Shown one piece after another: positions 22,435 to 31,528 of a DNA stretch of 46,611 nt. This DNA comes from Rhodocyclaceae bacterium (lineage in GTDB: Bacteria; Pseudomonadota; Gammaproteobacteria; Burkholderiales; Rhodocyclaceae). A program made the position numbers and the translations under genes. Within the stretch, counting starts at the first letter, position 1. Each line of letters begins with the position of its first letter. Below the pieces are notes generated by a model, which worked only from the letters and a program-made list of their open reading frames with translations, was not told the DNA's origin and ran no database searches. The DNA is taken from contig JAGRGD010000024.1 of NCBI GenBank assembly GCA_020445665.1, forward strand, positions 1 to 46,611, written 5' to 3'.

Positions 22435-23220
22435 ATGGGGGTGCCTGCGGGGCGCTACGACGGCCACGTCCATGTCTTCGACCTGGCGCAGCCGATGGTG
22501 GACGGCCGCCGCTACACGCCGAGCCGCGCGGCGCTGCTCGGCTCGCTCGACGTGCTGTTGCGGGCCCACGGCATGGACGGCGCGCTGCTGGTGCAGCCCA
22601 GCTTCCTGGGCGAGGACAACGCCTATCTGCTGCAGGCCCTCGCAGCCGCGCGCGAGACCTCGGACCTGCGCTATCGCGGCGTCGCGATGACCTCCCCATC
22701 GACACCGGCGGGCACCCTGCAGCAACTGACGGACGGTGGCGTGGTCGGCATGCGCCTCAACCTCGTCGGTGCGCCGCTGCCCGATATCGACTCGCGCCCG
22801 TGGCGGGCGCACCTGCAGGCGCTGTCACGAATGGGGTGGCACGTCGAGGTGCACCTCGAGGGTGAGCGTCTCGCCGCCTTTCTGCCCGCGCTGGTGGCGC
22901 AGGTCGAGACGGTGGTCGTGGATCACTTCGGCCTGCCCGCCCCGGGCTGGTCGGACCCGGATGTGGCCCTGGCGCCGCTGCTGGACACCCCGCCCGATCG
23001 GCTGATGGTGAAACTCAGCGCGCCGTACCGCTTCGCCCCGGACACCCCGTCCGCGGCGCTTGCGCCGGCCGTCGCGCCGCTGGCCGCGCGACTGGCGCGC
23101 CATCTGGGACCGCGACGCCTGCTATGGGGCAGCGACTGGCCCTGGACGCGTTTCGAGGCGGGACGCAGCTATCGCGAGACCCTGTCGTGGGAATCGCTGT
23201 GGATGCCTCAGTCGGTCTGA
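22435..23220 (+). CDS. Amidohydrolase family (COG3618, 2-pyrone-4,6-dicarboxylate lactonase-like)
   Basis: The 261-residue TIM-barrel hydrolase has YDGHVHVFD near the N terminus (the metal-site HVH), YRGVAM, VGMRLNLVGAPLPDI, VEVHLEGE, VVVDHFGLPAPG and the C-terminal LLWGSDWPWTRFE with the conserved Asp. COG3618 members hydrolyse lactones and related ring esters of dicarboxylic acids. Divergence from gntR and dctPQM across a shared operator suggests it processes the acid taken up by the TRAP system. A TTG at 22408 with GGGAG five bases upstream is a credible alternative start adding nine residues. Confidence 0.85.
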   Translation: MGVPAGRYDGHVHVFDLAQPMVDGRRYTPSRAALLGSLDVLLRAHGMDGALLVQPSFLGEDNAYLLQALAAARETSDLRYRGVAMTSPSTPAGTLQQLTDGGVVGMRLNLVGAPLPDIDSRPWRAHLQALSRMGWHVEVHLEGERLAAFLPALVAQVETVVVDHFGLPAPGWSDPDVALAPLLDTPPDRLMVKLSAPYRFAPDTPSAALAPAVAPLAARLARHLGPRRLLWGSDWPWTRFEAGRSYRETLSWESLWMPQSV

Positions 23221-23645
23221 TCCGGTCCGGCGTCGCCGGCCGTCTCGTCTTCGGGCGGCGCGGAAGCCTCGGGTGGCGGCAGGCCAAGCGCCAGCCACGC
23301 GGTCCAGTCGAGGGGCGACCATTCCTGCGGCGGCGTCTGCGGAAACAGCGGACGCCGCGGCATGATCGGCCGCTTCGGCCGGAACGGGCGCGGCGGCATC
23401 ATCGGCAGGCCCGATGGGGGAAGGCTGTTGCGGGCCCGCGGCGCCTGCTCCGGGCACCAGCCGACGATCAGGCCGTCCCGGTCCAGCAGTGCGCCGTTGT
23501 TCCAGGGGCCGAGCCAGGTCGCCGTGGCGGCGTGATACAGGTGTTCCCGGTGGATGAAGGCCAGCCACTCGATCTGTGTATCGAAGATGTTCTGGCCTTC
23601 GACCCAGCCCACGTGCTGCATCGCACGGTCAAAAATCGGAGTCAT
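23208..23645 (-). CDS. Small 4-fold beta-flower-type protein with Pro-rich tail
   Basis: In the 145-residue product the N-terminal 60 residues contain short repeats typical of beta-flower proteins: FDRAMQHVGWVEGQNIFD, IEWLAFIHREHLYH, TWLGPWNNGALLDRDGLIVGW. Residues 70-125 are rich in Pro and Arg (PPRPFRPKRPIMPRRP) and the C terminus is acidic. No signal peptide is seen. Function is unknown. It overlaps the last 13 bases of the convergent amidohydrolase. Confidence 0.65.
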   Translation of the reverse strand: MTPIFDRAMQHVGWVEGQNIFDTQIEWLAFIHREHLYHAATATWLGPWNNGALLDRDGLIVGWCPEQAPRARNSLPPSGLPMMPPRPFRPKRPIMPRRPLFPQTPPQEWSPLDWTAWLALGLPPPEASAPPEDETAGDAGPDQTD

Positions 23646-23721
23646 CGGATCTGCCCGGCAGGATCAAGGCGGCCAGCATACCGGCCGAAGCCGGGGCCGC
23701 GCGAGTTGACGCGCCGGCTGC

Positions 23722-24165
23722 CTACTTCTCGACCTTGCCCTGCATCACCATGATGGTCTGCTGCATCAATGCGCAGAGCGTTTCACGTTCGCCGTTCACC
23801 GCGAAGACCTCGGCCCGCGTCACGATCAGGGTGCGGCCCGGCCGCAACACCGAGCCGCGGGCGACCAGATGGTCGCCGTCGGCCGGCGCCACGAGGTTCA
23901 TCTTGTATTCCACGGTCAGCACCGAAGCCGTGGCCGGAACGACGGTCATCGCGGCGTAGCCGGCGGCCGAGTCGGCGATCATGCCGACCACGCCGCCATG
24001 GACGAAGCCATGCTGCTGCTCGACGCCGTCCCAGTGGGGGACATGGATCTCGGTGCGCCCGTGTTCGATGACGGGCATCGTCGCGTGGATCAGGTGCATG
24101 GCGTTCTGTCGGGCGAAGCTGGCCGCCACGGCGGCGGCGAAGTCGGGATTGGCGATGGTGGTCAA
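23722..24165 (-). CDS. PaaI-type hotdog thioesterase
   Basis: The 147-residue product has the hotdog fold signature VEQQHGFVHGGVVGMIADSAAGYAA (HGGVV..D, catalytic region), then VEYKMNLVAPADGDHLVARGSVLRPGRTLIVTRAEVF. PaaI-type enzymes hydrolyse acyl- or aryl-acetyl-CoA thioesters. The start is uncertain: TTG 24165 has GGAG six bases upstream and gives the usual N terminus (TTIANPDFAAAVAASFARQ). TTG 24225 overlaps the stop of the preceding gene but would add 20 residues of no known domain. Confidence 0.82.
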   Translation of the reverse strand: MTTIANPDFAAAVAASFARQNAMHLIHATMPVIEHGRTEIHVPHWDGVEQQHGFVHGGVVGMIADSAAGYAAMTVVPATASVLTVEYKMNLVAPADGDHLVARGSVLRPGRTLIVTRAEVFAVNGERETLCALMQQTIMVMQGKVEK

Positions 24166-24221
24166 GGAGAGCTCCGGTCGGGCGGCGGTGCCGCCACAGT
24201 AGGCGTTCGTTGATGTCAACG

Positions 24222-24605
24222 TCAACCGTCAGGCGCGCCGAGGCGTGCGACCAGATCCCAGGCCAGGGCGGCGAAGAAGAGCGCGAAGCCGAGCCGCCTG
24301 GCGTGTCTTGCGAACGCGCGGTAGCGGTGCTCGTTGTCCCGTTCGTCGTAGTGGTCGACGATGACGGACAGCGCCAGCAGGGCGCCGCAGGCGAGGGCGC
24401 CGACCATCAGGAGGGCTGGCACGTCGTGCAGGTGGGTGACGTGTCCGCGGCGCCCCGGCAGGGCCACGTCGTTGGTGGCGAGGCCGTAGCCGCCATAGCC
24501 GATCAGGCAGGCGGCCAGGATCCCGTATCCGATGCGCTCACGCAGCGGCACCTGGTTGGGCACGTGGGCCCTGCGCGATCTGCTTCGGGAAGCGGGCTTT
24601 CCCAT
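24222..24605 (-). CDS. Small membrane protein of unknown function
   Basis: The 127-residue product has a basic N terminus (SRSRSRRAHVP), a membrane helix IGYGILAACLIGYGGYGLA and a second LLMVGALACGALLALSVIV. A short His/Asp-rich segment follows (DHYDERDNEHRYRAFARHARR) and then a third hydrophobic stretch, LGFALFFAALAWDLV. I do not recognise the family. It lies directly upstream of the thioesterase on the same strand. Confidence 0.6.
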   Translation of the reverse strand: MGKPASRSRSRRAHVPNQVPLRERIGYGILAACLIGYGGYGLATNDVALPGRRGHVTHLHDVPALLMVGALACGALLALSVIVDHYDERDNEHRYRAFARHARRLGFALFFAALAWDLVARLGAPDG

Positions 24606-24652
24606 CGATGATCCTGCTCACCGCGAAAGTGGCATTGTCGCCCAGGCAAACG

Positions 24653-24684
24653 GAAAAAGGCCGGACTGCAGATGCAGTCCGGCC
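24653..24684 (-). terminator. Strong intrinsic terminator closing the GTPase/protoglobin operon
   Basis: The arms GGCCGGACTGC (24659-24669) and GCAGTCCGGCC (24674-24684) pair perfectly over 11 bases with a four-base loop. On the minus strand the hairpin is followed at once by TTTTT (24658-24654). It lies about 50 bases beyond the protoglobin stop. Confidence 0.9.
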
Positions 24685-24733
24685 TCTCCCGGCCCGCCGG
24701 GGGGGGGGCGGGCATGGCGCGGCGGAGGGGGGG

Positions 24734-25297
24734 TCAGCCGCCGCGTTCCTTCTGCAGGCGCTTGCCCACTTCGGCGTGGAGGATGCGCTGGACCAGCGTG
24801 GGGTTCATGCCGACCACGCTCTCCATCGACTCGACGTAGGTGTAGAAGTAGGACTCGGCGATCAGCGCCGCGACGACATCGGTGGCGCGCTTGAAGGCGA
24901 GATACAGGGCCAGGGCTTCGTCGGGCGGCAGGGCGGCCTGGACTTTCTCCAGGAAGAGCTGCTGGACGCGGCTCATCATGCCGAGCATGAAGGCGTTGGG
25001 CACTGCGCGCAGGATGTGCAGGATGCCGACCACCCACTGACGCTGCCAGAAGGCCTCGTCGTGCTGGCCAGAGAGCATCTGGTCGAACCACTGCATGGTG
25101 GTCGCCTCGCGGTCCGGGCGCTCGCCGTCCTTGAAGACCTTGCGGGTCGGCTCGTAGTCGAAGATCGTGTTGTAGAAGGTGGTGACGAATTCCTGGATCC
25201 ACGGCTTGGTGGTCTCGGCGTACTTGGCCAGCAACTCGGCGTCGGCCGACGTGTAGCCGCACAGGACGCGCATCTCTTCGTAGACTTTGATGTTCAT
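24734..25297 (-). CDS. Stand-alone protoglobin-type haem protein
   Basis: The 187-residue product matches the protoglobin / globin-coupled-sensor domain: YTSADAELLAKYAETTKPWIQEFVTTFYNTIF, then FWQRQWVVGILHILRAVPNAFMLGMM. H94 in ILHILRAVP is the likely proximal haem ligand (H-X5-P as in globin sensors). No output domain follows; the chain ends soon after helix H (VGKRLQKERGG). Such globins bind O2, NO or CO. GAGGAG precedes ATG 25297. It is the last gene of a six-gene set with a roadblock protein and an MglA-like GTPase, so it may act as the gas-sensing partner of that switch. Confidence 0.88.
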   Translation of the reverse strand: MNIKVYEEMRVLCGYTSADAELLAKYAETTKPWIQEFVTTFYNTIFDYEPTRKVFKDGERPDREATTMQWFDQMLSGQHDEAFWQRQWVVGILHILRAVPNAFMLGMMSRVQQLFLEKVQAALPPDEALALYLAFKRATDVVAALIAESYFYTYVESMESVVGMNPTLVQRILHAEVGKRLQKERGG

Positions 25298-25322
25298 GGT
25301 GGGTCTCCTCGAGGGCGCTGGA

Positions 25323-25685
25323 TCAGATCAGCTTGGTGATGGACTCGGCGGCACGCTTGACGTCGAGGAAGATCAGTCCGAGCTTGGCCGAGGGCTTGGC
25401 CATCACGGTCAGCACCGATTCGCTGCCCGCGCCGATCATCAGCACGTAGCCGGTGGCACCCTTGATCAGGACCTGCTCGAGCTTGCCGCGCGACAGTTCC
25501 TGCGCCGTGCGGTCGCCCAGGGAGAGCATGGCCGCGCTCATCGCGCCGATCCGGTCCTCGTCGAGGCCCTGGGGCAGCATCGAGGCCATCATCAGGCCGT
25601 CGATGGAAATGATGGCCGAGGCTTCGATCTCGGCCGAGGTGCCGTTGAGCTCCGCGAGCACGGACTTGAGGGTTTCTGACAGCAT
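25323..25685 (-). CDS. Roadblock/LC7 domain protein (MglB-like)
   Basis: The 120-residue product is one roadblock domain: MLSETLKSVLAELNGTSAEIEASAIISIDGLMMASMLP, then RIGAMSAAMLSLGDRTAQELSRGKLEQVLIKGATGYVLMIGAG and ESVLTVMAKPSAKLGLIFLDVKRAAESI. Roadblock proteins dimerise and act on small GTPases, as MglB does as GTPase-activating protein for MglA in Myxococcus. GGAGG precedes ATG 25685. The MglA-like GTPase two genes upstream is the natural partner, though pairing is inferred. Confidence 0.92.
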   Translation of the reverse strand: MLSETLKSVLAELNGTSAEIEASAIISIDGLMMASMLPQGLDEDRIGAMSAAMLSLGDRTAQELSRGKLEQVLIKGATGYVLMIGAGSESVLTVMAKPSAKLGLIFLDVKRAAESITKLI

Positions 25686-25738
25686 GGTTTGTCCTCCGAT
25701 GGGAACGGGTTGAGCGCACGGGTCGATATGGATTCGAC

Positions 25739-26389
25739 TCAGCGCTCCAGGGTGGGGGCCGGCGAGCCGTAGCGCTGGAACAGCGCCCAGACGAGCTCGA
25801 CCAGCTGGGGTCGGTTGAACAGGGGTACGCCCTGGATGACCAGCACGAAGCGCTGTTCGCCGATGTACAGAGGCCAGAAGCCGATCTGGCTGTGTCCTGC
25901 CGCATTGGCCAGCGCCCAGGCGCTGCCCGACAGGTTGAGGTTCCGGTTCAGGGCGCCCTGGTGGCGCTCGTGCAGCGTGGCCAGGTCGGCCGACAGGGCG
26001 GCGAGCTCCTCGGCCACCTCATGGGCGAAGCCGCGGCAGGCGACGGAAAAGCCCTGGGCATCGGCGAGCAGGCATTTGCCACGCCCGGAGAAGACCCGCA
26101 CGACGAGATCGGTCAGGTTCTCGAGCGGCACGTCCGGCGCCACCGCTTCCCGCTCGAGATACTGGATCCAGCCCAGTTCTTCGAGCTGCTTCAGAAAGCT
26201 GTCCGCGTCGCGGGGGTCGTCGAAACCGCTCAGCTGACGCAGGCTCGACTCGCTCAACGCGGGCGAGCGCGGGCAGGCGAGCAGGGCCCGGAGAAATCGG
26301 CGGAGGCGGTTGTCCGCGTTCTCGGCCACGGCGAAATAGGCGCCGGCCGGCGACGGGGCAAGAAAGCTCGGGCGGTCGTTCGAGGTCAT
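25739..26389 (-). CDS. Unknown protein of the GTPase/roadblock operon
   Basis: In the 216-residue product, with no signal peptide or membrane segment, residues 25-85 look like a helical, winged-helix-like region (RLRRFLRALLACPRSPALSESSLRQLSGFDD, FLKQLEELGWIQYLERE). Residues 95-210 look like an alpha/beta sheet domain that could be roadblock-related (LVVRVFSGRGKCLLADAQGFSVACRGFAHEVAEELAALSADLATL, then FWPLYIGEQRFVLVIQGVPLF). I do not recognise a named family. It is one base from the GTPase stop and 53 bases from the roadblock start. Confidence 0.75.
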   Translation of the reverse strand: MTSNDRPSFLAPSPAGAYFAVAENADNRLRRFLRALLACPRSPALSESSLRQLSGFDDPRDADSFLKQLEELGWIQYLEREAVAPDVPLENLTDLVVRVFSGRGKCLLADAQGFSVACRGFAHEVAEELAALSADLATLHERHQGALNRNLNLSGSAWALANAAGHSQIGFWPLYIGEQRFVLVIQGVPLFNRPQLVELVWALFQRYGSPAPTLER

Positions 26390-26390
26390 G

Positions 26391-26930
26391 TCAGGCGCTG
26401 GCCACCGGGTCGATCACGCTCAGCAGGGCCTCGACCAGAAGACTGATGTCGCGGCGGTCGCGGGCGTCCACCTCGAACACCGGCACGTTAGGGAAGCCCA
26501 TGGCCTCGAGGCGATGGTTGTAGGCCTCGATGGTCGGGTCGTCCTTGAGGTCGAAGCGGCTCACGCCGACCACCACCGCGGTGCTGCGGATGAACTTGCC
26601 GAAGGCCTCCATGTAGAAGCGCAGGTCGCTGAAGGGATTCTCGCGGGCGTTGTCGATCAGCAGCACCAGGCCGATGCCGCCCTCGGTCAGGATCTCCCAC
26701 ATGAAATCGAAGCGTTCCTGGCCGGGCGTGCCGTAAAGGTGCACCGTTCCGCCGTCCTCGAGCCGCATCGCGCCGTAATCCATCGCAACCGTGGTCTTCT
26801 CCTTGCGGTCGCGGGTCATGTCGGTGGCCTTGGCGTCGGTGCTGACCGGCGCGATGTCCGACAGCGCCGCGATGGCGGTTGTCTTGCCGGCGCCCACCGG
26901 GCCGGTAAAGATGATCTTGTACTGGCTCAT
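26391..26930 (-). CDS. MglA-like small Ras-type GTPase
   Basis: The 179-residue product has a P-loop GPVGAGKTT (residues 10-18), a Thr-rich switch I, the switch II motif YGTPGQERF (about 66-74) where Ras has DTAGQ, as in MglA-type bacterial GTPases, and then LVLLIDNARENPFSDLRFYMEAF. The base-specificity motif NKXD is replaced by VSRFD (about 123-127), so nucleotide preference may be relaxed. These proteins are polarity or switch GTPases driven by roadblock-type GAPs. Its ATG overlaps the stop of the upstream gene (ATGA). It lies in the same operon as a roadblock protein and a protoglobin. Confidence 0.9.
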   Translation of the reverse strand: MSQYKIIFTGPVGAGKTTAIAALSDIAPVSTDAKATDMTRDRKEKTTVAMDYGAMRLEDGGTVHLYGTPGQERFDFMWEILTEGGIGLVLLIDNARENPFSDLRFYMEAFGKFIRSTAVVVGVSRFDLKDDPTIEAYNHRLEAMGFPNVPVFEVDARDRRDISLLVEALLSVIDPVASA

Positions 26931-28078
26931 GGGTGATCCTGTGCGGTGTCGGCGCGCTGGTTGCCGAGCAGTTTTCCGAGAATCCGGTTGAACAGGCCGC
27001 GTCGTTTCGGTGCCGGCGCCGCCTCGGGCGCTGCGGTGGCGGGCGTCGGCGGTGCGACAGGCACCGCTTCGCAGTGCACGGCCGCAATCGAGCGGCAGGC
27101 GCTGAAGAAGGCGAACACGTGGCGCTGCGGGATGCCGAGCAAGGTCGCGGTCTCGGGCATCGAGCGCGCCTGGCTTGCCCACAGCCCGGCGATCCGCATG
27201 GCGTCGGGGGGCAGGCCGAGTCGCGTCAGGTTGGGCCAGCGCACAAGCCGGATCGGTGCCCTGATAGGCACCCCCGTCGGGATGCGTCCACGGGCGGCCC
27301 ACAGGGCCAGCTCCCAGCGCAGCGGCGCAATTGCCCGCCATGCCCGGTTGGCGTCCGCCCCGGTGTTGACGGTGACGACGCGGAAGTCGGCTTTCGAGAG
27401 GGGGATCAGGCCCAGCGAGCGCAGCGATCGCCGGTCGAGCGATGTTTCGTAGGCCTGCCCGTCCGCGCGGATGGTCATGATCCGCTCTTCGCCATGAACG
27501 ATGTTTGCCGCCGCGTCCGTCGATTCGGCGATCCGGCAGGCCTCCTCGACGATGCCCTGAAGATACTTGCCGGGCTGGTAGTAGGCGCGCTCCATCATGC
27601 CGGCGTCCGCCGGATCGAGATCGGGCAGCGAGCCGACGTAGAGGTTGGACAGACGTGTGTCGGCCTGGTCCTGGACGATGGCCGAGGCGCGGCGGCCGGC
27701 CGCCTCCTTGTCGGTCCCGCTGCCGCTGGCTTTTGCGTCGTGCTGCGGGGCCCGGCCCGCAGCCAGCGCCTGCGCCAGGCCGTGGGCGAACTTCTCGAGG
27801 CTGACGGGTTTCTCGATCCATACCGACAGCGCGTCGCGGGCGAGTTCGCCTTTGAGCGACACATGGATCATCGGCCGCTTCGGGAAGAGCATCCGGTGCG
27901 CCTGCACCAGATACGGGCCCAGGTAGTTGTCGGTGTCGATTACCGCGATGTCGGCGCCGGCTTCCTCGACCAGTTCGCAGTCGAAGTTTTCGACATGCTT
28001 GAGGAACATCTCGAAGGTGGCCAGGGCGCGCCCTTCCATGCCGCCGTGGCAGAGCCGGAGCCGGTGCCGTGTGCTCAT
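26927..28078 (-). CDS. Unknown regulator-like protein of the GTPase operon
   Basis: The 383-residue product is soluble, with no signal peptide. The N-terminal ~110 residues resemble a receiver-like alpha/beta fold without a clear phospho-acceptor (LATFEMFLKHVENFDCELVEEAGADIAVIDTDNYLG, PMIHVSLKG, WIEKPVSLEKFAHGLAQAL). The KP pair in IEKPVSLEKF recalls the end of REC domains. A linker (about 110-140) is rich in Ala/Gly/Lys. The rest (FRVVTVNTGADANRAWRAIAPLRWELALWAARGRIP, then MRIAGLWASQARSMPETATLLGIPQRHVFAFFSACRSI) looks like a DNA- or protein-binding helical part. A Pro/Ala-rich tail precedes a basic end (KRRGLFNRILGKLLG). No named family is recognised. Confidence 0.75.
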   Translation of the reverse strand: MSTRHRLRLCHGGMEGRALATFEMFLKHVENFDCELVEEAGADIAVIDTDNYLGPYLVQAHRMLFPKRPMIHVSLKGELARDALSVWIEKPVSLEKFAHGLAQALAAGRAPQHDAKASGSGTDKEAAGRRASAIVQDQADTRLSNLYVGSLPDLDPADAGMMERAYYQPGKYLQGIVEEACRIAESTDAAANIVHGEERIMTIRADGQAYETSLDRRSLRSLGLIPLSKADFRVVTVNTGADANRAWRAIAPLRWELALWAARGRIPTGVPIRAPIRLVRWPNLTRLGLPPDAMRIAGLWASQARSMPETATLLGIPQRHVFAFFSACRSIAAVHCEAVPVAPPTPATAAPEAAPAPKRRGLFNRILGKLLGNQRADTAQDHP

Positions 28079-28488
28079 GCCGGTGTGGACTCCCTGCGGT
28101 CACGGCCAAGGAAACCCAGGCTCAGAACCGAGTCGCCGTAGCCGGCCGGCGAGCTGTCGCGCGCGTCGATGCCGCTGGTGAGGTGGTGCTTGAGGTAGTT
28201 GCGCTGGCCCTCGTTCAGGTGCGCGTGCACCTTGTCGTACAGATGGCGCTTGAGGCCGGCGCCCCGCTGGCCGAGGGCGATGAAGAGGTCGATCAGGGCG
28301 CCGAAGCAGCGCTCGCCCGATGCGCTCTGCCCCGCCAGCAGGATGCGCCGGGTATGGGCCTTGAGATCGGTCGGCTGGCTGGCGACGGACAGCTGCAGGT
28401 AGCCGAGCAGGTCGTCGGCGCCGCCGGGCACGCTGAGCGCCTTGTGGTCATCCATCCAGAATGAGGGTTCGGGGCGGGGGATATGCAA
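28075..28488 (-). CDS. Unknown small protein, first gene of the GTPase operon
   Basis: The 137-residue soluble product has a central segment, YLQLSVASQPTDLKAHTRRILLAGQSASGERCFGALIDLFIALGQRGAGLKRHLYDKVHAHL, that reads as a helical bundle and ends with LGFLGRDRRESTPA. Family unknown. The start is a TTG at 28488 with AGGAG six bases upstream; ATG 28455 would give a shorter form. Its end overlaps the next gene by four bases. The leader region upstream holds an inverted repeat (28539-28574). Confidence 0.65.
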   Translation of the reverse strand: MHIPRPEPSFWMDDHKALSVPGGADDLLGYLQLSVASQPTDLKAHTRRILLAGQSASGERCFGALIDLFIALGQRGAGLKRHLYDKVHAHLNEGQRNYLKHHLTSGIDARDSSPAGYGDSVLSLGFLGRDRRESTPA

Positions 28489-28538
28489 AACGACTCCTGT
28501 GGGCTGTACCGGGCCTGGGCCACGGTGGCAGTGGGTCC

Positions 28539-28574
28539 TCCGCTAACGGATCATTTCCCGGCCGCTTTAGCGGA
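28539..28574. promoter_or_regulatory. Inverted repeat upstream of the GTPase/protoglobin operon
   Basis: TCCGCTAA (28539-28546) and TTAGCGGA (28567-28574) are perfect 8-base inverted arms around 20 bases, 51 bases before the first start codon of the operon. The region upstream (28590-28630) is the most AT-rich nearby and is the likely promoter. No TTGA-N6-TCAA box is present. It may be an operator or an mRNA hairpin. Confidence 0.4.
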
Positions 28575-28702
28575 ATCGCAACGCCGCTCTGTGGCGATGT
28601 GTGTATTACTTAGGAATATGCCAGGGTGTTCCGTACTGCCCCGGATGACGAGGGGAGGGTCCGCTCCGACAGGCGGTGACTGGCCAGCCGGGGGGCGAAG
28701 AC

Positions 28703-30508
28703 TCAGGCCGGAGTGGCCTCGCGGACCAGGGCGAGGATCTGCTCGCCGTAGGCCTCGAGCTTGCGGTCACCGACACCGGAAATGGAGGACAGCGCGTCCA
28801 GGCTCTCGGGCCGCGCGTGGGCGATGTCGGTCAAGGTTGCATCGTTGAAGATCACGTAGGCGGGTACGTTGCGTTCCCGCGCCATCTCACTGCGCCATTG
28901 CCGCAGGGCCTCGAACAGCGCGTCGTCGCGGGCATCGCGACCGACGAAGCGCGGCTCCTTGCGGACCCGCTTGCGGCGGGTCGGCTCGCGCATGCGGAAT
29001 TCGGCCTCGCCCTTGAGCAGCGGGCGGGATGCCTCGGTCAGCAGCAGGGCGTTGAAGCGGTCGTGGTCCACGGCCAGCAGGCCGCGCGCCACCAACTGCC
29101 GGAACACACTCTTCCAGCTCTTCTCGTCCAGTTCGGCGCCGATGCCGAAGGTGCTGACCCCCTCGTGGCCCCGCTCCGAGACCTTCTCGGTCGGCTCGCC
29201 CCGCAGCACGTCGATCAGGTAGGCGGCGCCATAGCGCTGTCCGGTCCGGTACACACAGGACAGCGCCTTTCGAGCAGCGTCGGTGGCGTCCCAGGTGCTC
29301 GGCGGCTGCAGGCAGGTGTCGCAGTTGCCGCAGGGTTCGGAGGCCTCGCCGAAGTGGGCGAGCAGCATCTGGCGCCGGCAGCCGGTGGTCTCGGCCAGCG
29401 CCACCAGGGCATCGAGCCGGCCGCGGGCCTGGCGCTTGAACTCCTCGCTGCCCTCGCTCATGTCGATCATGCGCCGCTGCTGCACCACGTCGCCCGCGCC
29501 CCAAAGCATCATCACCTCGGCGGGCAGCCCGTCGCGGCCTGCACGACCGGTCTCCTGATAGTAGCCCTCGAGGGAGCGGGGCAGGTCGAGGTGGGCGACG
29601 AAGCGCACATCCGGCTTGTCGATGCCCATCCCGAAGGCGATGGTCGCCACCATCACCGTCGCCTCCTCGCGCAGGAAATGGAGCTGGTTCGCCGCCCGCG
29701 CCTCGGCCCCCATGCCGGCGTGGTAGGGCAGCGCTGGGATCCCCTGTTCCACGAGGAAGGCGGCCGTCTCGTCCACCTTGCGGCGCGAGAGGCAGTAGAC
29801 GATGCCGGCCTCGCCCCGGTGCTCGTCGCGGATGAAGGAAAGCAGCTGCTTGCGCGGGTTGTCCTTGTCGGCGATCCGGTAGCGGATGTTCGGGCGGTCG
29901 AAGCTCGAGATGAAACGGCGTGCCTCGGTGAGCTGCAGGCGCTCCGCAATTTCCTCCCGGCCGCGCGCATCGGCGGTGGCGGTGAGCGCGATGCGCGGCA
30001 CGCCCGGGAAGCGCTCGGCCAGCACGGCGAGCTGCAGGTATTCGGGGCGGAAATCATGGCCCCACTGGGCCACGCAGTGGGCTTCGTCGATCGCAATCAG
30101 CCCGATCCGGCCCTCCCGGTGGAGGCTCTCGAGCATCGACAGGGTGCGCCCGGCGAGCAGCCGTTCGGGCGCAACGTAGAGCAGATCGAGCGCACCGGCC
30201 CGCAGATCCATCTCGATGGCCCATGCCTCGTCCTGGTCGAGGCTGGAGTTCAGATAGGCCGCCGCGACGCCGGCCTCCCGCAGCGCGCTGACCTGATCAT
30301 GCATCAGCGCGATCAGCGGCGAGACGACGATCGCCGTGCCCACGCGCAGCAGCGCCGGGATCTGGTAGCACAGGGATTTTCCGCCACCGGTGGGCATCAG
30401 CACCAGGGCGTCGCCGCCGGCCAGGACGTGCTCGACGATGGCCTCCTGCTCGCCGCGGAAGCTCGGGTAGCCGAAGACATGCTGCAGGGTTTCGCGGGCG
30501 CGGGACAT
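28703..30508 (-). CDS. recQ: ATP-dependent DNA helicase RecQ
   Basis: The 601-residue product has the full RecQ layout: helicase Walker A MPTGGGKS (about residues 38-45), DEAH at 141-144, motif VI QETGRAGRDG, and a zinc-binding region with CRRQMLLAHFGEASEPCGNCDTC. The winged-helix RQC domain follows (FGIGAELDEKSWKSVFRQLVARGLL), then a C-terminal HRDC domain (LFEALRQWRSEMARERNVPAYVIFNDATLTDIA). It unwinds DNA with 3'-5' polarity in recombination and repair. ATG 30508 gives the typical N terminus; the frame stays open to 30655 but that part lacks similarity. trxC lies upstream on the same strand. Confidence 0.96.
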   Translation of the reverse strand: MSRARETLQHVFGYPSFRGEQEAIVEHVLAGGDALVLMPTGGGKSLCYQIPALLRVGTAIVVSPLIALMHDQVSALREAGVAAAYLNSSLDQDEAWAIEMDLRAGALDLLYVAPERLLAGRTLSMLESLHREGRIGLIAIDEAHCVAQWGHDFRPEYLQLAVLAERFPGVPRIALTATADARGREEIAERLQLTEARRFISSFDRPNIRYRIADKDNPRKQLLSFIRDEHRGEAGIVYCLSRRKVDETAAFLVEQGIPALPYHAGMGAEARAANQLHFLREEATVMVATIAFGMGIDKPDVRFVAHLDLPRSLEGYYQETGRAGRDGLPAEVMMLWGAGDVVQQRRMIDMSEGSEEFKRQARGRLDALVALAETTGCRRQMLLAHFGEASEPCGNCDTCLQPPSTWDATDAARKALSCVYRTGQRYGAAYLIDVLRGEPTEKVSERGHEGVSTFGIGAELDEKSWKSVFRQLVARGLLAVDHDRFNALLLTEASRPLLKGEAEFRMREPTRRKRVRKEPRFVGRDARDDALFEALRQWRSEMARERNVPAYVIFNDATLTDIAHARPESLDALSSISGVGDRKLEAYGEQILALVREATPA

Positions 30509-30575
30509 GGGGCGCCATTCTATCCCGCATCGGCGATTGCCTTCCTTTCCAGGCTCCGGGCGGCCGGTCAGACGC

Positions 30576-31016
30576 TCAGCGGGCCTGGCTGCGCGCCCAT
30601 TGCACGATCCCTCCGGTGTCCATCGCGCCGGCCTGTCGCGCCACCTCCCGCCCACCCCGGATCAGCACCAGGGTCGGGATGCTGCGAATGCCGAAGCGGG
30701 CGGCCAGGGACGGCTCGGCCTCGGTGTCCACCTTGGCGAGGCGCATACCCGGTTCGAGCAGCGCAGCCGCGGCCTCGAAGGCCGGCGCCATTGAGCGGCA
30801 CGGACCACACCACGGGGCCCAGAAGTCCACCAGCAGCGGCAGTTCGCCCCGGCCGGCATGGATCTCGAAGCGGCGCGCATCGAGCGCGAGGGGCGCTGCG
30901 GCAAAGATCGGCTGGTGGCACTTGCCGCAGCTCGGCGCATCGGCCAGGCGTGCGCCGGGCAGGCGGTTGAGGGCGTCGCAGGCGGGGCAGGGGACGATCA
31001 GGCTGGCGGTGGACAT
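30576..31016 (-). CDS. trxC: Thioredoxin TrxC (thioredoxin 2)
   Basis: The 146-residue product has the extra N-terminal zinc-binding part of TrxC, two CXXC pairs (CPACDALNRLPG, CGKCHQP). A thioredoxin fold with active site WCGPC and the cis-proline IPTLVL follows. It reduces cytosolic disulfides and is usually linked to oxidative stress. ATG 31016 was chosen from known TrxC starts; an upstream ATG at 31031 is possible. It is divergent from the dihaem cytochrome gene. Confidence 0.93.
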   Translation of the reverse strand: MSTASLIVPCPACDALNRLPGARLADAPSCGKCHQPIFAAAPLALDARRFEIHAGRGELPLLVDFWAPWCGPCRSMAPAFEAAAALLEPGMRLAKVDTEAEPSLAARFGIRSIPTLVLIRGGREVARQAGAMDTGGIVQWARSQAR

Positions 31017-31138
31017 CGGGCACTCCGGCAAGGGGGTGACGGGTAGATGTGGGCGCCGCCTTCCCGTTCAAGCACGGACTACAATGGAGATCATGCCAAC
31101 GGGCTGACGTCGAGCCCCTCGAGGAGCGCCCTGTCCCG

Positions 31139-31528
31139 ATGTTTTCACGCCGAATCCTGCGCACGCTGGCCCTGGTCGCCGGCGCGGCCGGCGCGCTGGC
31201 GCCGCAGGCCGGTATGGCCCAGTGCGTCGTCACCCAGCCCGCCCCGCCGACCGAGCCCGAGTCCCCCGAACATCATCCGGTCGGACGCGAGCTGCCGGCC
31301 CGGCCCGGCTTTGCCCAGCCGGACGGCTGTACCGACGCCTTCTGGTTCTTCGATCAGGATGGCGATGGTCAGGCGGACGACGCCGAGCCGCGCCTCTACG
31401 GCCCCCGGCGGGCCGTGGTGTGCGGCTCCTGCCACACCGATGCGCCACCCGATCCGGGGGGCGTCGCCTTCGAGGTATTCCTCCGCCAGGAGCCCGCGAC
31501 CTTGTGCCTCGTCTGCCATTCGATATGA
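31139..31528 (+). CDS. Small periplasmic dihaem-type cytochrome c with a DxDxDG motif
   Basis: The 129-residue product has a signal peptide (LALVAGAAGALAPQAGMA) and two CXXCH haem sites (CGSCH and CLVCH, the second six residues from the C terminus). It also has a calcium-loop-like stretch DQDGDGQADDAEPRLYG. Only about 25 residues separate the haem motifs, so the haems would be closely stacked, as in small multihaem electron carriers. No family is recognised. GAGGAG lies 12 bases upstream of ATG 31139. It leads an operon with a small protein and a caspase-like peptidase. Confidence 0.7.
   Translation: MFSRRILRTLALVAGAAGALAPQAGMAQCVVTQPAPPTEPESPEHHPVGRELPARPGFAQPDGCTDAFWFFDQDGDGQADDAEPRLYGPRRAVVCGSCHTDAPPDPGGVAFEVFLRQEPATLCLVCHSI

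What the first reader, a model, noticed from the sequence alone, without database searches (positions are those of the whole stretch)
24653..28574. Six-gene operon joining an MglA-like GTPase, a roadblock protein and a lone protoglobin
Six co-directional genes with overlaps or short gaps end in one strong terminator and encode: unknown (137 aa), receiver-like unknown (383 aa), MglA-like GTPase (179 aa), unknown (216 aa), roadblock/LC7 (120 aa), protoglobin (187 aa). GTPase/roadblock pairs act as polarity or switch modules; a haem gas sensor beside them suggests a switch set by O2, NO or CO. The GTPase and roadblock assignments are firm; the coupling to the globin and the whole-system function are inference. 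I know of no described system with this set.
Basis: partly seen in the sequence, partly recalled or inferred. Interest (0 to 1): 0.85.

Follow-up and report, generated by a model that had tools for sequence, protein, structure and literature searches.

The report
GTPase switch with stand-alone globin sensor
A bacterial operon joins a Ras-like GTPase switch and its two roadblock regulators to a separate haem globin, and related operons elsewhere repeatedly carry a globin or another oxygen/redox sensor beside the same regulator, which points to a small-GTPase switch set by gas or redox state.

Summary
In detail: six minus-strand genes (28488-24734), overlapping or 1-53 bp apart, end in one strong hairpin. 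Most Group 3 operons lack the globin: 5 of 95 MglA places in 369 class genomes have one beside them. But stand-alone globins of certain lineages usually have a roadblock gene next door: 17 of 25 loci (10 of 15 families), against 0 of 20 multi-domain globins with about 6 kb flanks. Genomes with a stand-alone globin have MglA in 15 of 20 cases, others in 49 of 348. Roadblock-linked globins fall in at least four places of the globin tree. Chloroflexota and Calditrichota show the pairing too, though most Anaerolineae stand-alone globins do not. Sibling operons carry other free sensors by the roadblock gene: Aer-type PAS, PhnD-like protein, truncated-globin reductase. Physical coupling and ligand are inferred. 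My paper searches found no description; the nearest is HGbRL, a globin-roadblock fusion.

The parts
28075..28488 (-). P0001, 137 aa helical protein of unknown function, TTG start; longer relatives (246-254 aa) have a C-terminal stretch, TPR-like by Pfam in one of two tested, that this one lacks
   Evidence: AlphaFold low confidence (pLDDT 61), five helices, no fold match below E 1
26927..28078 (-). P0002, 383 aa, Group 3 companion: receiver-like N-terminus and (by the literature on the family) winged-helix C-terminus
   Evidence: profile of 14 relatives: best PDB hit a response regulator, E 0.0062; relatives precede MglA in most of 30 sibling loci; PMC4316618
26391..26930 (-). P0003, Group 3 MglA-like small GTPase, 179 aa, only MglA-like match found in this genome
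   Evidence: G5 motif DAR, G4 without the NKxD lysine, read from the sequence
25739..26389 (-). P0004, 216 aa, second MglB-type roadblock protein with an extra N-terminal part
   Evidence: AlphaFold pLDDT 76; Foldseek probability 1.00 to M. xanthus and Thermus MglB; weak Pfam; weak profile link to P0005
25323..25685 (-). P0005, MglB-type roadblock/LC7 protein, 120 aa, only Pfam roadblock match found in the genome
24734..25297 (-). P0006, stand-alone protoglobin-family haem globin, 187 aa, with conserved His94 and Phe41-Tyr42
24654..24684 (-). intrinsic terminator after the globin gene

Best explanation
The operon encodes a Group 3 MglA switch whose input is a separate haem globin. SHOWN by sequence or structure prediction: an MglA-family GTPase, two MglB-type roadblock proteins, a receiver-like companion protein, and a protoglobin-family protein with its histidine ligand position kept, in what reads as one transcription unit; recurrence of the roadblock-globin pairing in other genomes with different globin lineages, and of other oxygen/redox sensors beside the roadblock gene in sibling operons. 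INFERRED: the globin binds O2, NO or CO (or reports haem redox state); it changes the assembly or activity of the roadblock protein(s), most likely P0005 whose gene it neighbours; this sets how long MglA stays GTP-bound; MglA-GTP acts through the receiver/winged-helix protein (gene expression) and perhaps on type IV pili. It works like a globin-coupled sensor split into separate subunits with a small GTPase as transmitter.
For: One operon with the globin as last gene before the hairpin. Stand-alone globins: a roadblock gene beside 17 of 25 loci, gaps 11-237 bp, 15 of 17 on the same strand, 10 of 15 families. Controls on multi-domain globins: 0 of 20 loci with about 6 kb on each side where the contig allows; also 0 of 30 loci (29 multi-domain, 1 stand-alone) within 1.5 kb. 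In eleven of the 17 one or more of u383, u137 and MglB2 are there as well, and in four so is MglA. In the window's family all 3 stand-alone globins that P0006 found (own, G195, G248) lie beside a roadblock gene and MglA. Co-occurrence with MglA: 15 of 20 stand-alone-globin genomes (own excluded) against 49 of 348, Fisher 7e-9; multi-domain-only 15 of 95 against 34 of 253, p 0.60 (relatedness not corrected). Tree of 85 globins: the roadblock-linked label needs 8 changes, 6 forced, so different globins took the same place. Chloroflexota: MglA, roadblock genes, DUF4388+roadblock, two globins. Exchangeable slot in 30 sibling MglA loci: PAS in 7, PhnD-like protein in 10, truncated-globin reductase in 2 seen (the one PAS tested matches the aerotaxis receptor best, 3.9e-37). 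Natural fusion HGbRL joins globin and roadblock (PMC4476040, passages).
Against: Only 5 of 95 MglA places in the class sample have a globin beside them, and none of 30 sibling MglA loci has a protoglobin-type one, so the switch does not need it. 12 of 29 loci found with the globin's own subfamily have no roadblock in the held flank, among them Anaerolineales (up to 54% identity to P0006) and Aquificota; some of these contigs are short, and the best hit by E-value, L151, does have roadblock genes. In an Anaerolineae-class sample 1 of 30 fetched loci had a roadblock, and that one is the query genome. 8 of 25 class loci have none. Some roadblock-globin pairs lie in genomes where no MglA was found (G347, G396). 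The three other genomes of the genus gave no P0006 match. No complex was modelled, no ligand tested.
Confidence: 0.6

Rival explanations
1. The globin is a protective or metabolic haem protein (NO dioxygenase, O2 or redox buffer) that rides in the operon because the same conditions induce it, without touching the GTPase or the roadblock proteins.
For: Several of the closest globin relatives, in Anaerolineales and Persephonella, lie among unrelated genes; two sibling MglA operons hold a truncated-globin reductase that looks enzymatic.
Against: No reductase in the window operon; the pairing is with roadblock genes, repeats with different globin lineages and also without MglA beside it; non-catalytic sensor types (Aer-type PAS, binding protein) sit beside the roadblock gene in sibling operons; among the best-matching solved structures are sensor globins: GsGCS (so named by recall), a globin-coupled histidine kinase, HemAT.
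Confidence: 0.2
2. The globin feeds the receiver-like protein P0002 or MglA directly (for example as exchange factor), and the roadblock proteins are only constitutive GAPs.
For: P0002 relatives are also present in many globin operons, including ones without MglA beside them; pseudo-receiver proteins often take protein inputs (recalled).
Against: Six of the 17 class loci (L142, L145-L149) have roadblock plus globin with no u383 found, and so do the Calditrichota loci L162 and L163, so the roadblock is the constant partner.
Confidence: 0.15
3. The adjacency is a by-product of operon decay and shuffling; the window's globin is a recent, neutral arrival in an intergenic place.
For: P0006 is a divergent single tip (end branch 0.85) and the three genus mates gave no match.
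Against: 17 of 25 against 0 of 20, globin often inside the operon between two MglB-type genes or between roadblock and u137, mostly tight gaps.
Confidence: 0.05

Closest known systems
Group 3 MglA systems (Wuichet and Sogaard-Andersen 2014, PMC4316618)
   Same: MglA with DAR G5 motif and no NKxD lysine, one or two MglBs, conserved receiver/winged-helix protein in the neighbourhood
   Different: No sensor gene is described in the passages I saw; the words globin, heme, oxygen, PAS domain and phosphonate do not occur in the held main text
HGbRL of Methylacidiphilum (PMC4476040)
   Same: Globin coupled to a roadblock/LC7 domain, proposed signal relay; genome also has an MglA-MglB-like pair
   Different: One fused polypeptide with an HGbI-related globin, in an operon with a methyltransferase; here separate genes, a protoglobin-family globin, and the MglA operon itself
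Globin-coupled sensors (GsGCS, HemAT, globin-coupled kinases)
   Same: Globin of the sensor family, histidine position kept
   Different: No transmitter domain fused; the supposed transmitter is a separate GTPase module
Actinobacterial conservons (Group 2 MglA: CvnA-D)
   Same: Sensor plus roadblock plus small protein plus MglA-type GTPase in one operon
   Different: Sensor is a histidine kinase, other MglA group (PMC4316618 passages)
Snodgrassella group 3 mgl locus (PMC11112851)
   Same: Same MglA group with two coupled MglBs; changes in an orphan mglB give an advantage in gut colonisation, possibly through type IV pili
   Different: No globin mentioned in the passages seen

Membership tests
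Group 3 MglA system | MglA with deviating G4 (no lysine) and DAR G5 motif | tested here: met
   P0003 reads GVSRFD at G4 and VDARDRRD at G5; motif definition from PMC4316618
Group 3 MglA system | Conserved companion protein with receiver-like N- and winged-helix C-terminus | tested here: inconclusive
   Receiver part supported (best PDB hits response regulators, E 0.0062); winged helix not tested; relatives precede MglA in most sibling loci
Group 3 MglA system | One or two coupled MglB proteins | tested here: met
   P0005 Pfam roadblock; P0004 roadblock fold; profile link between the two families is weak (probability 16%)
Protoglobin / sensor-globin family (PF11563) | Family profile and proximal histidine | tested here: met
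   7.9e-18; His94, Phe41, Tyr42 invariant in 19 of 19 aligned
Protoglobin / sensor-globin family (PF11563) | Binds haem and a gas ligand | not testable with these tools
   needs purified protein
Globin-coupled sensor (sensu stricto) | Globin fused to a transmitter domain | tested here: not met
   187 aa, globin only
HGbRL-type globin-roadblock fusion | Both domains in one chain | tested here: not met
   separate genes P0005 and P0006
Conservon (Group 2) | Histidine-kinase CvnA in the operon | tested here: not met
   no kinase domain found among the six

The most novel reading that the evidence does not exclude
Group 3 MglA/MglB operons have a sensor slot beside the roadblock gene into which free-standing oxygen or redox sensors are plugged and swapped: protoglobins of at least two lineages, a truncated-globin reductase, an aerotaxis-type PAS domain, and a PhnD-like binding domain with no export signal seen by eye. 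Bacteria would thus use roadblock-controlled small GTPases as a general, modular receiver of cytoplasmic gas/redox signals, a sensor-to-Ras-type-GTPase architecture not described in the papers I could search.
Probability: 0.5. Interest if true: 0.85.

Novelty: new variant of a known kind. Interest (0 to 1): 0.72.

Why it matters
The papers I saw name no input signal for Group 3 MglA systems, which are almost confined to beta- and gammaproteobacteria. A recurrent stand-alone globin (and Aer-type PAS) beside the GAP-like roadblock gene names a testable input, oxygen, NO, CO or redox state, and a testable point of action. It would be a direct gas-to-Ras-like-GTPase link without histidine kinase or cyclic nucleotide, built from exchangeable subunits.

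Tried and rejected
Rejected: the six-gene set as one conserved unit. Most MglA operons seen have no protoglobin-type globin beside them (0 of 30 sibling loci; 5 of 95 places in the class), and P0001 is often missing or much longer.

Rejected: stand-alone globins in general go with roadblock genes. The Anaerolineae-class sample says no (1 of 30 loci), and 8 of 25 class loci have no roadblock: L126, L127, L134, L135, L139, L140, L144, L150.

Led nowhere: fold of P0001 (pLDDT 61, no match below E 1); profile link P0004-P0005 (probability 16%); Pfam and NCBIfam on P0001 and P0002; one paper search with too loose terms. The terminator scanner missed the hairpin. Viral, phage and E. coli collections were not searched.

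Caveats on counts. 'Stand-alone' means an open frame of at most about 240 aa among the rows that one search listed (its weakest rows were not listed); L150 gave no match to my own globin profile and L144 a weak one. The roadblock profile was built partly from roadblocks of the same loci; Pfam on its own confirms roadblock for 15 of 15 members of A5 and for 10 of 10 further neighbours. The 30 sibling loci include several from one genome and a few divergent MglAs; of the 10 PhnD-like hits, 7 loci were confirmed with Pfam and 3 (L087, L090, L091) rest on BLAST; only some neighbour genes were scanned, so 2 truncated-globin loci is a minimum. In L034 roadblock and binding protein face the MglA operon from the other strand. 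The tree's root split is weak (77/75) and treekit warned of long branches at the G195/G248 pair. Gene calls are a crude home-made ORF picker. MglA counts use E 1e-15.
Full report
OBSERVATION. The six minus-strand genes are there as described. Neighbouring genes overlap by 4 bp twice, then lie 1, 53 and 25 bp apart, with Shine-Dalgarno-like stretches before five of six starts by eye, and a perfect 12-bp hairpin with five T follows the globin gene at 24684-24654. The consensus scan found no promoter-like site in 22500-31500 and no minus-strand terminator-like site there, but it also missed the hairpin just named. The unit is best read as one transcript that ends with the globin. The genome is a draft of 4.79 Mb in 341 contigs in which P0003 found one MglA and Pfam one roadblock, both here, and two PilT-family matches over cut-off.

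WHAT THE CORE IS. P0003 has the G1, G3 and switch residues of its relatives, a G4 without the NKxD lysine (GVSRFD) and a DAR G5. These are marks that Wuichet and Sogaard-Andersen give for Group 3 MglA (PMC4316618, passages read; Group 2 shares the DAR). They describe Group 3 operons as a conserved protein with receiver-like N- and winged-helix C-terminus, MglA, and one or two MglBs. P0002 fits the first (profile best matched by response regulators, E 0.0062). P0005 is a plain roadblock protein. P0004, without a Pfam match over cut-off, folds as an N-terminal part plus a roadblock domain (pLDDT 76); its best solved matches include MglB of Myxococcus and Thermus at probability 1.00, while the sequence-profile link to P0005 is weak. 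So four of the six genes are a known kind. The same four genes without globin occur in other genomes of the order and in Neisseria gonorrhoeae. In Snodgrassella, which has the same group, changes in an orphan mglB give an advantage in gut colonisation of a non-native host (PMC11112851, passages).

THE GLOBIN. P0006 is a stand-alone protoglobin-family protein (7.9e-18); His94 and Phe41-Tyr42 are invariant in 19 of 19 aligned relatives. His94 lines up with the histidine that solved sensor globins have at this place; that this is the haem-binding proximal histidine is recalled knowledge of the family.

IS THE GLOBIN A REAL PARTNER? In the window's family (150 genomes) P0006 finds 7 genomes with a match; the three with short frames (own, G195, G248) all have it beside MglA and a roadblock gene; the other four matches lie in frames of 669-911 aa. 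In G195 and G248 the operon is a DUF4388-like protein, a divergent MglA (37%), roadblock, globin, then a GGDEF-EAL protein (the domain names DUF4388, GGDEF and EAL there are my reading of the sequence). In 369 genomes of the class, 116 have a protoglobin match. I took the 25 listed stand-alone loci outside the own genome: 17 have a roadblock gene 11-237 bp away, 15 of these on the same strand, in 10 of 15 families; 8 have none. Controls: 0 of 20 multi-domain globin loci with about 6 kb on each side where the contig allowed, and 0 of 30 loci (29 multi-domain) within 1.5 kb. In several the globin sits inside the operon, between the two MglB-type genes (L129, L131, L133, L136) or between roadblock and u137 (L130, L132, L137, L138). 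Genomes with a stand-alone globin have MglA in 15 of 20 cases (own excluded) against 49 of 348 (Fisher 7e-9); genomes with only multi-domain globins do not differ from those with none (15 of 95 against 34 of 253, p 0.60). Related genomes are not independent; by family, MglA is found in 10 of the 15 with stand-alone globins.

A scan of named genomes with the globin's own subfamily gave 29 loci, 17 with a roadblock gene in the held flank; 9 of these 17 repeat earlier contigs. New are Chloroflexota operons with MglA, roadblock genes, a DUF4388-roadblock protein and two globins (L151, checked with Pfam; L154 and L155 alike by profile), Calditrichota loci with roadblock and three globins (L162, L163), and three gammaproteobacterial ones. 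Twelve have none, among them Anaerolineales and Aquificota relatives that are among the most similar to P0006; some of those contigs are short. In 199 Anaerolineae-class genomes, 30 fetched globin loci gave one roadblock neighbour, the query genome itself. The association is thus lineage-bound, not general.

The tree of 85 globin domains puts roadblock-linked globins into at least four places: the 38-row clade with P0006, the clade of L128/L129/L131/L133/L136, the G195/G248 pair, and the first globin of the Chloroflexota operons; 8 changes of label, 6 forced by well-supported branches (the root split is weak and the G195/G248 branch is long). P0006 is not in the clade used by the other Group 3 MglA operons with a neighbouring globin. 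So different globins came to sit at the same place, which I take as the strongest sign of function.

A SENSOR SLOT. Sibling MglA operons carry other stand-alone sensors there (30 loci). Seven have a PAS protein next to the roadblock gene (L035, L084-L087, L090, L091; Pfam); the one tested against solved structures is closest to the aerotaxis receptor Aer (3.9e-37). Ten have a PhnD-like substrate-binding protein (7 confirmed with Pfam; 3 by BLAST); several begin directly with the mature domain, with no export signal seen by eye. At least two have a 2Fe-2S/FAD/NAD reductase fused to a truncated globin (L083, L088). Oxygen or redox sensing is thus the likely theme of at least three unrelated sensor types.

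HOW IT MOST LIKELY WORKS. Haem ligand or redox state changes the globin; the globin, as partner of the roadblock protein, changes MglB action on MglA; MglA-GTP signals through P0002 and perhaps type IV pili. Order of genes, recurrence and exchange are shown; each physical step is inferred. HGbRL, where a globin and a roadblock domain are one chain (PMC4476040, passages), is a natural precedent.

NOVELTY. Searches of the held papers for protoglobin with roadblock (none), globin with MglB (one paper: HGbRL), MglA with roadblock and globin (the same paper), globin with 'roadblock LC7' (none) and MglA, roadblock, PAS domain, aerotaxis (none) found no description. Subscription papers are mostly not held. 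I rate it a new variant of a known kind.

Noticed in passing
L089:5194-7040 (G250, same genus as the window): Next to RecQ-like and thioredoxin-like genes as in the window, a sister species keeps only P0002 and MglA; its MglA reads PGREPL where the window has PGQERF and has lost a switch threonine, and no Pfam roadblock gene was found in that genome.
   Followed up: partly
L136:4400-8316 (G396): An operon u137-u383-MglB2-globin-roadblock without MglA, in a genome of 99% completeness where the MglA profile found nothing.
   Followed up: partly
L088:1169-2776 and L083:6122-7915: 2Fe-2S/FAD/NAD reductase fused to a truncated globin inside a roadblock-rich MglA operon.
   Followed up: partly
L037:4880-6226: An ABC-type ATPase fused to a dual-specificity-phosphatase-like domain between MglA and a roadblock gene.
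   Followed up: no
L044 (NZ_CP119140.1): Two Neisseria gonorrhoeae records of 2.17 Mb listed as plasmids are chromosome-sized; the MglA match in both is in two pieces, in different frames in the one fetched.
   Followed up: no
window 23208-24225, minus strand: A '4-fold beta flower' protein (PF21784) and a thioesterase follow the operon; a gene that looks like the former also follows MglA in G250 (by eye).
   Followed up: no
L162:2790-5077 and L163:1992-4217: Three stand-alone globins after a roadblock gene in Calditrichota.
   Followed up: no
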